A stretch of 64,000 nucleotides of DNA from a virus: IMG/VR virus record IMGVR_UViG_3300032288_005197, positions 21,561 through 85,560 of that record; one strand, 5' to 3'. Within the stretch, counting starts at the first letter, position 1. Every line of letters begins with the position of its first letter. The notes under the pieces were generated by a model. The model worked only from the letters and a program-made list of their open reading frames with translations. It had not been told where the DNA came from and did no database searches. Made by a program: the position numbers and the translations under genes. This document shows, piece after piece, positions 63,067 to 63,415 of this stretch.

Positions 63067-63204
63067 GGGCAAATATAGGATTCGAACCTATGTTTTGAAG
63101 TAACTCTAGATCTTGCTACGTCGCTATTGTTTTATTTATAAGTTTAGGTAAAGAAAGTTTCCAACGGAAATGTAGGTGCTCTAACCACTGAGCTACCGAC
63201 GGGC
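63067..63204 (-). tRNA. Interrupted or composite tRNA-like unit (5' and 3' halves ~80 nt apart)
   Basis: 5' half at 63172-63204 has a normal D-arm (TAGCTC...GAGCA). 3' half at 63067-63091 has T-stem ATAGG/CCTAT with loop TTCGAAT and then ATTTGCCC. Between them is an ~80-nt insert holding a perfect TATAAATAA box (63132-63140) and the repeat at 63098-63121. The acceptor strands (CCGTCGG and ATTTGCC) do not pair, so this is not a plain intron-containing tRNA. Confidence 0.4.
63098..63121 (-). repeat. tRNA-region repeat, copy 1
   Basis: Minus strand GTAGCAAGATCTAGAGTTACTTC-type sequence (+ strand starts GAAGTAAC). One of three copies sharing TAGCAA...GTTACTTC. Confidence 0.6.
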
Positions 63205-63211
63205 AGTTAGC

Positions 63212-63255
63212 GCCGCCAGATGGGATTCGAACCCACGACCACCCGGTTAATAGCC
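63212..63255 (-). tRNA. Orphan 3' half of an Asn-like tRNA
   Basis: Anticodon-loop remnant CTATTAA followed by CCGGG, variable region, T-stem GTGGG/CCCAT with loop TTCGAAT and 3' strand CTGGCGG. No D-arm or matching 5' acceptor (CCGCCAG) is found upstream; repeat copy 2 directly precedes it. Confidence 0.4.
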
Positions 63256-63280
63256 GAAGTAACCGTTTAGATTGCTATTA
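63256..63280 (-). repeat. tRNA-region repeat, copy 2
   Basis: Minus strand ATAGCAATCTAAACGG then TTACTTC. Directly upstream of the orphan Asn-like 3' half. Confidence 0.6.
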
Positions 63281-63323
63281 CCTTAATATTATTGGGAGAA
63301 AGTTGTAAAGGTGTAACGCTTTC

Positions 63324-63396
63324 GCGCCTCTGTGGGGGTCGAACCCACTACCCATTTTGTTGAAGAAAATTGCTCTACCAATTGAGCTAAGAAGTA
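63324..63396 (-). tRNA. tRNA with anticodon TCA (UGA-reading, suppressor/Trp-like)
   Basis: D-arm TAGCTCAATTGGTAGAGCA, anticodon stem ATTTT/AAAAT with 7-nt loop CTTCAAC (T33, anticodon TCA), variable GGGTA, T-stem GTGGG/CCCAC with loop TTCGACC. The acceptor TACTTCT/AGAGGCG pairs at five or six of seven positions and no CCA is encoded. The body resembles bacterial tRNA-Trp. UCA would read UGA. Repeat copy 3 overlaps its 5' end. Confidence 0.6.
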
Positions 63397-63415
63397 ACCC
63401 TTACATTGCTACCCA
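63391..63415 (-). repeat. tRNA-region repeat, copy 3
   Basis: Minus strand GGGTAGCAATGTAAGG then GTTACTTC; runs into the 5' acceptor strand of the UCA tRNA. Confidence 0.6.

What the first reader, a model, noticed from the sequence alone, without database searches (positions are those of the whole stretch)
63067..63415. Run of broken tRNA units sharing a 25-nt repeat
Three copies of TAGCAA...GTTACTTC (63098, 63256, 63391) lie directly before a tRNA 3' half or within a tRNA 5' end. The 5' and 3' acceptor strands around them do not pair, while the other tRNAs of the window are intact. The sequence before the first two copies also shares AACTTTCT. Possible explanations are a mobile element that targets tRNA genes, tRNA halves for trans-assembly, or tRNA-derived decoys against tRNA nucleases. 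The insert of the first unit also holds a perfect TATAAATAA box.
Basis: seen in the sequence. Interest (0 to 1): 0.7.

Follow-up and report, generated by a model that had tools for sequence, protein, structure and literature searches.

The report
Phage Y RNAs carrying rearranged tRNAs
The three 'broken tRNAs' are most likely intact genes for three side-by-side phage Y RNAs, small RNAs that dock on the ring protein Ro60, each showing a near-complete tRNA shape whose parts are strung together in a different order, so they probably work as tRNA mimics rather than as tRNAs.

Summary
The repeat is real (three copies, none in 100 shuffles), but these are not broken tRNAs. On the minus strand 62986-63416 encodes three tandem Y RNAs. 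TAGCAA...GTTACTTC is the 5' strand and ACTTTCT the 3' loop of a bulged stem that matches the Ro60-binding stem of Y RNAs; the pieces between fold into a tRNA cloverleaf. Y1 has native arm order (D, anticodon, T) on a 5-bp acceptor stem. Y2 and Y3 are circular permutations with a closed acceptor hairpin: anticodon-T-acceptor-D and T-acceptor-D-anticodon. Covariation supports all three. Six related phage contigs keep the order Y1-Y2-Y3. A TROVE/Ro60 gene lies in 46 of 50 viral records with the motif and in 0 of 17 with a scrambled core. The closest relative has Ro60 just upstream of where this contig ends. Phage Y RNAs are already known. What looks new is three arm orders side by side, each with an anticodon arm, one unpermuted; the 2014 founding paper could not be read to exclude an earlier description. 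Ro60 binding and function are untested. Decay, trans-assembly and mobile-element readings are not supported; a tRNA-mimic/decoy reading stays open. ARAGORN calls Y1 a 'tRNA-SeC': such calls may not be suppressor tRNAs.

The parts
63292..63416 (-). Y1: Y RNA. Lower stem TTGGG/CCCAA, internal loop TAGCAA/ACTTTCT, upper stem TGTAAGGG/CCTTTACA; insert is a native-order cloverleaf plus a small extra hairpin
   Evidence: 12-sequence alignment: 95.9% of cells paired, 19 of 35 pairs with double-sided change, covariation 0.385 vs 0.165 shuffled and 0.06-0.11 slid; coordinates
63327..63394 (-). tRNA-like module of Y1: 5-bp acceptor CTTCT/AGAGG (5' strand inside the GTTACTTC motif), D arm, anticodon arm ATTTT-CTTCAAC-AAAAT (UCA triplet), T arm; no CCA. 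Called tRNA-SeC by ARAGORN
63147..63282 (-). Y2: Y RNA with permuted tRNA, order anticodon-T-acceptor hairpin-D (opened at positions 26/27)
   Evidence: RF02553 YrlA 33.7 bits, below gathering 69; permuted arms; coordinates
63242..63258 (-). anticodon arm of Y2, TTCGG-CTATTAA-CCGGG; its 5' strand is the TTC of GTTACTTC
   Evidence: L024 and L103 have GTT at the anticodon, this window ATT
63196..63219 (-). acceptor stem of Y2 closed as a hairpin, CTGGCGG / CCGTCGG
62986..63122 (-). Y3: Y RNA with permuted tRNA, order T-acceptor hairpin-D-anticodon (opened in the variable loop)
   Evidence: 14-member class; anticodon stem fully paired in 14/14 with compensatory change in 5/5 columns (members largely chosen by that stem)
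63020..63036 (-). anticodon arm of Y3, TCTGA-CTAATAA-TCAGA
62956..62975 (-). terminator-like hairpin after Y3, followed by a T run
   Evidence: 1 found, 0.9 expected in shuffles; a similar hairpin is at this place in L024
63391..63411 (-). Y1 copy of the repeat TAGCAA...GTTACTTC
63256..63277 (-). Y2 copy of the repeat
63097..63118 (-). Y3 copy of the repeat

Best explanation
The locus encodes three tandem Y RNAs of a large phage. Each has a bulged stem (5' TAGCAA + stem + GTTACTTC; 3' stem + ACTTTCT or a similar strand) that should dock on a Ro60 ring protein. Each displays a tRNA-like module with D, T and anticodon arms, U33 kept in nearly all, and no CCA end. The module is attached at a different point: at the acceptor end (Y1), at the D/anticodon junction (Y2), or at the anticodon/T junction (Y3). 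Shown here: sequence, helices, covariation, conservation, linkage to Ro60 in relatives. Inferred: the phage encodes Ro60 just beyond the contig end, and Ro60 binds these RNAs. Most likely mechanism (inferred): Ro60-Y RNA particles use the tRNA mimic to engage tRNA-recognising proteins, either tethering a nuclease such as PNPase to Ro60 or occupying tRNA-cutting enzymes. The confidence given is for the identity and anatomy; for the mechanism see the two mechanism versions among the rivals.
For: Y1: covariation far above shuffled and slid controls. Y3: helices pair in the class, anticodon stem 14/14 (class chosen largely on that stem, strands hand-parsed). Y2 type: among 91 phage loci 36 have a perfect 5-bp anticodon stem vs 8.7% shuffled; U33 in 46 of the 50 with at least 4 pairs. 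T arm followed by acceptor hairpin and D arm in 131/201 vs 19% in controls. Ro-type stem with strict geometry in 105/234 vs 5.3%. Closest relative L024: 94% identity over 62915-63437, the three units preceded by a Ro60-like ORF with TROVE and vWA_Ro60 domains. RNA ligase and kinase-like genes nearby.
Against: No Ro60 gene in the 85.6-kb fragment itself. Rfam YrlA score is below its gathering cut-off, and tandem ordinary tRNAs in the same contig reach 24.7 bits. Single-sequence folding is unremarkable, z -1.1 to -1.7. The upper stem of Y3 in the window is short (AGAGT/ACTCT). No expression or binding data.
Confidence: 0.88

Rival explanations
1. Mechanism version 1, tether: the tRNA-like modules attach Ro60 to PNPase or another nuclease, steering decay of structured or damaged RNA, as in Deinococcus.
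For: In Deinococcus radiodurans a Y RNA tethers the Ro60 ortholog to PNPase; the tRNA-like domain is described as the effector-binding part (PMC8394870, PMC7790460).
Against: Does not by itself explain several modules with different arm orders and varied anticodon loops.
Confidence: 0.4
2. Mechanism version 2, decoy: the anticodon-bearing modules are baits that protect phage and host tRNAs from defensive tRNA-cutting nucleases during infection.
For: Anticodon arms with U33 kept in all three arm orders while the anticodon triplets differ; T4 Rnl1-type RNA ligase and polynucleotide-kinase-like genes nearby; many tRNAs around the units in relatives; competitive inhibition of an anticodon nuclease was proposed for Salmonella YrlA (PMC7790460).
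Against: YrlA itself was not cut by the Salmonella nuclease (PMC7790460). Similar permuted Y RNAs with anticodon arms occur on bacterial contigs, so the module is not a phage-only adaptation, although those contigs were not checked for prophages. No assay.
Confidence: 0.35
3. Degenerating tRNA genes, i.e. pseudogenes.
For: Acceptor strands look unpaired in normal reading order; no CCA.
Against: Compensatory changes in most helices; order Y1-Y2-Y3 kept in six related contigs.
Confidence: 0.02
4. Split or permuted tRNA genes that are cut and joined into working tRNAs.
For: The '3-prime half' precedes the '5-prime half' in Y2 and Y3.
Against: Acceptor strands are joined by short loops (TTCG in many relatives); no CCA; Y1 has a 5-bp acceptor stem that uses the Ro motif.
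Confidence: 0.03

Closest known systems
YrlA-type bacterial and phage Y RNAs (Rfam RF02553; Salmonella YrlA structure 6CU1)
   Same: Bulged Ro60 stem carrying a circularly permuted tRNA mimic with T arm, acceptor hairpin and D arm; linked to Ro60; reported in bacteria and in phages (mycobacteriophages named in PMC12282133)
   Different: [quoted passage not shown] Here each unit also has an anticodon arm, three arm orders stand in tandem, and Y1 is unpermuted. The Rfam model stays below its cut-off on Y2 and reports none of the relatives' Y RNAs
Permuted Y RNAs with anticodon arms on bacterial contigs (Streptomyces, Paenibacillus, Chryseobacterium and others)
   Same: Same GTTACTTC core; Ro-type stem in 51/144 vs 5%; perfect anticodon stem in 21/89 vs 5.4%
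   Different: A tandem set of three arm orders was not looked for there; prophage origin not excluded
Putative Y RNAs of Listeria phage CKA15 (P100-like)
   Same: Abundant unannotated RNAs close to an Rsr-like gene (PMC12282133)
   Different: Exact core not found in the stretches of P100 read; short hairpins with AACAGCAATTACTA beside gp165, a DUF2828/DUF7788 protein

Membership tests
Y RNA (Ro60-bound, broad sense) | Bulged stem with conserved internal loop that matches the Ro60 site | tested here: met
   Covariation in Y1 and the Y3 class; geometry across phages. That it is the Ro60 site is by resemblance and linkage, not by binding
Y RNA (Ro60-bound, broad sense) | Encoded with a Ro60/TROVE gene | tested here: inconclusive
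   Met in 46/50 related records and L024; the window's own contig ends before the expected place
Y RNA (Ro60-bound, broad sense) | Physically binds Ro60 | not testable with these tools
   Needs pull-down or gel shift
YrlA, Rfam RF02553 | Score at or above the gathering cut-off (69 bits) | tested here: not met
   33.7 bits for Y2; none in relatives. Not filed as RF02553
YrlA-like permuted tRNA mimic | Order T arm, acceptor hairpin, D arm | tested here: met
   Y2 and Y3; Y1 does not have this order
Functional tRNA | 7-bp acceptor stem with free ends and CCA or discriminator | tested here: not met
   Y1 has a 5-bp stem and no CCA; Y2 and Y3 have closed acceptor hairpins

The most novel reading that the evidence does not exclude
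Some phages carry a set of Y RNAs that show a whole tRNA, anticodon arm included, attached to Ro60 at several different points, as a standing panel of decoys against host tRNA-cutting defences.
Probability: 0.25. Interest if true: 0.85.

Novelty: new variant of a known kind. Interest (0 to 1): 0.6.

Why it matters
If right, it shows that one RNA scaffold can carry a tRNA in several circular orders, which makes Ro60 function in phages testable with a small set of RNAs. It also warns that odd phage tRNA calls (SeC, Stop and the like) may be Y RNAs. Related Y-like units were found next to Ro60-like genes in cultured phages such as Caulobacter phage CcrColossus and Gordonia phage Neville, so bench work is possible.

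Tried and rejected
Rfam alone: YrlA below cut-off, and adjacent ordinary tRNAs score up to 24.7 bits, so it was used only as a lead. Single-sequence folding: weak z-scores, anticodon arm of Y1 not recovered. Reading Y1 as a third permutation with its small hairpin as acceptor: replaced by the native-order cloverleaf because CTTCT/AGAGG covaries (U-A to G-C in 4 of 12). First loose stem test: control rate too high (25% at score 12), replaced by strict geometry. MAFFT alignments of Y2 and Y3 were not used for covariation; segments were parsed instead. In the Y3 parse the L100 T-stem strands were mis-entered by one base; the true stem GCGGG/CCCGC also pairs. Exact core in Listeria phage P100: not found in 1-45000 and 85001-131384, the middle was not read. 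Mobile element and trans-assembly readings: no support found. The founding Y RNA papers were not in the library.

Full report
Observation. TAGCAA-N7..9-GTTACTTC occurs three times in the window, all on the minus strand at the named place, and never in 100 dinucleotide shuffles. GTTACTTC alone is not unusual. ARAGORN calls one tRNA here, 'tRNA-SeC' with anticodon TCA.

Anatomy. A permissive Rfam scan gave a weak YrlA (Y RNA-like) match over the middle unit, 33.7 bits against a cut-off of 69. Reading the strand with that lead, each unit has a lower stem, an internal loop (TAGCAA opposite ACTTTCT or a similar strand), an upper stem ending in the G of GTTACTTC, and a tRNA-like insert. Y1 is 63292-63416, Y2 63147-63282, Y3 62986-63122. 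A terminator-like hairpin follows Y3 (about one such site is expected by chance).

Arm orders. Y1: 5-bp acceptor stem, D, anticodon, T in native order, then a small hairpin. Y2: anticodon, T, acceptor hairpin, D. Y3: T, acceptor hairpin, D, anticodon. So the same tRNA shape is joined to the Y stem at three points.

Tests. Y1 was aligned with 11 relatives: 95.9% of cells paired, 19 of 35 pairs with a change on both sides, covariation score 0.385 against 0.165 for shuffles and 0.06-0.11 for slid partners. For Y3, 14 units were parsed by hand; every anticodon stem pairs fully with compensatory changes in all five columns, U33 in 13. That class was largely selected by the anticodon stem, so the counts show compensation within the class, not its frequency. 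For the Y2 type, 36 of 91 phage loci have a perfect anticodon stem against 8.7% when strands are shuffled between loci, and slid registers give 0 to 6. A T arm followed by an acceptor hairpin and D arm was found in 131 of 201 against 19%, and the Ro-type stem in 105 of 234 against 5.3%.

Distribution. TROVE was found in 46 of 50 records with the motif and in none of the 17 scrambled-core records. The motif also occurs on bacterial contigs, with anticodon stems in 21 of 89 against 5.4%, so anticodon arms are not confined to phages.

Relatives. Read from the core positions, L024, L103, L045, L072, L085 and L080 all have a Y1-type, a Y2-type and a Y3-type unit in that order; the Y2 slot of L085 holds a diverged unit and L080 has two Y1-type units. 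Window 62915-63437 matches L024 at 94%, and 63907-64000 matches directly adjoining L024 sequence at 97%, so 63438-63906 is extra in this genome. In L024 a 541-aa ORF with TROVE and vWA_Ro60 domains lies upstream. This contig ends at window 64000, so the absence of Ro60 here is uninformative.

What it does. Nothing here tests function. I take as most likely that a phage Ro60 binds these RNAs and that the tRNA mimic engages tRNA-recognising proteins. Whether that tethers a nuclease, as described for Deinococcus, or occupies a tRNA-cutting enzyme, as proposed for Salmonella YrlA, is open; nearby RNA ligase and kinase-like genes fit either.

Novelty. Y RNAs in phages are known: PMC12282133 refers to mycobacteriophages, PMC7824862 reports ROT/TROVE proteins in some jumbo phages, and PMC7765460 a Ro60-related protein in a Vibrio phage. 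The papers read describe the tRNA-like part as D, T and acceptor arms and as a circular permutation. Three arm orders in tandem, anticodon arms and an unpermuted module were not found in them, but the founding papers were not available, so novelty is provisional.

Cultured phages. In the Ro60 regions of seven INPHARED records, units with paired Ro-type stems appear near the Ro60-like gene in Caulobacter phage CcrColossus, Gordonia phage Neville, Streptomyces phage BRock and Xanthomonas phage Usaquen. That scan was looser than the strict test and had no shuffled control; it also hits coding sequence, so single units there are candidates.

Noticed in passing
window 63438-63906 (-): 469-bp stretch absent from closest relative L024; no ORF over 60 aa and no Rfam hit in the permissive scan; ends in a long hairpin (AAGAGTGAAG...CTTCACTCTT) and T-rich tail. 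Fold z-score only -0.95. Unexplained.
   Followed up: partly
window 63907-64000 (-): Partial tRNA-like unit cut by the contig end; L024 has a 7-bp acceptor GATTAGG/CCTAATC here by eye, but ARAGORN does not call it.
   Followed up: partly
window 58645-59781 (-) and 60225-60641 (-): T4 Rnl1-type RNA ligase and a polynucleotide-kinase-like P-loop protein: possible RNA-repair genes 2-4 kb downstream of the Y RNAs.
   Followed up: partly
L103 7825, L045 1623, L085 2641, L080 7695, L100 358, L048 1817: Further Y-like units holding a whole tRNA in native order with its own acceptor stem; ARAGORN calls these as Pro, SeC, Leu or Gln tRNAs.
   Followed up: partly
L024 919, L072 3242, L103 5193 (-): Short Y-like units without a tRNA module.
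   Followed up: no
L275 38170-38430 (-), Listeria phage P100: Three short hairpins with AACAGCAATTACTA or a close variant beside gp165 (DUF2828/DUF7788); may be the abundant RNAs seen in CKA15.
   Followed up: partly
L080, L100, L103: Dense tRNA arrays, 22 to 38 ARAGORN calls in 12-14 kb.
   Followed up: no
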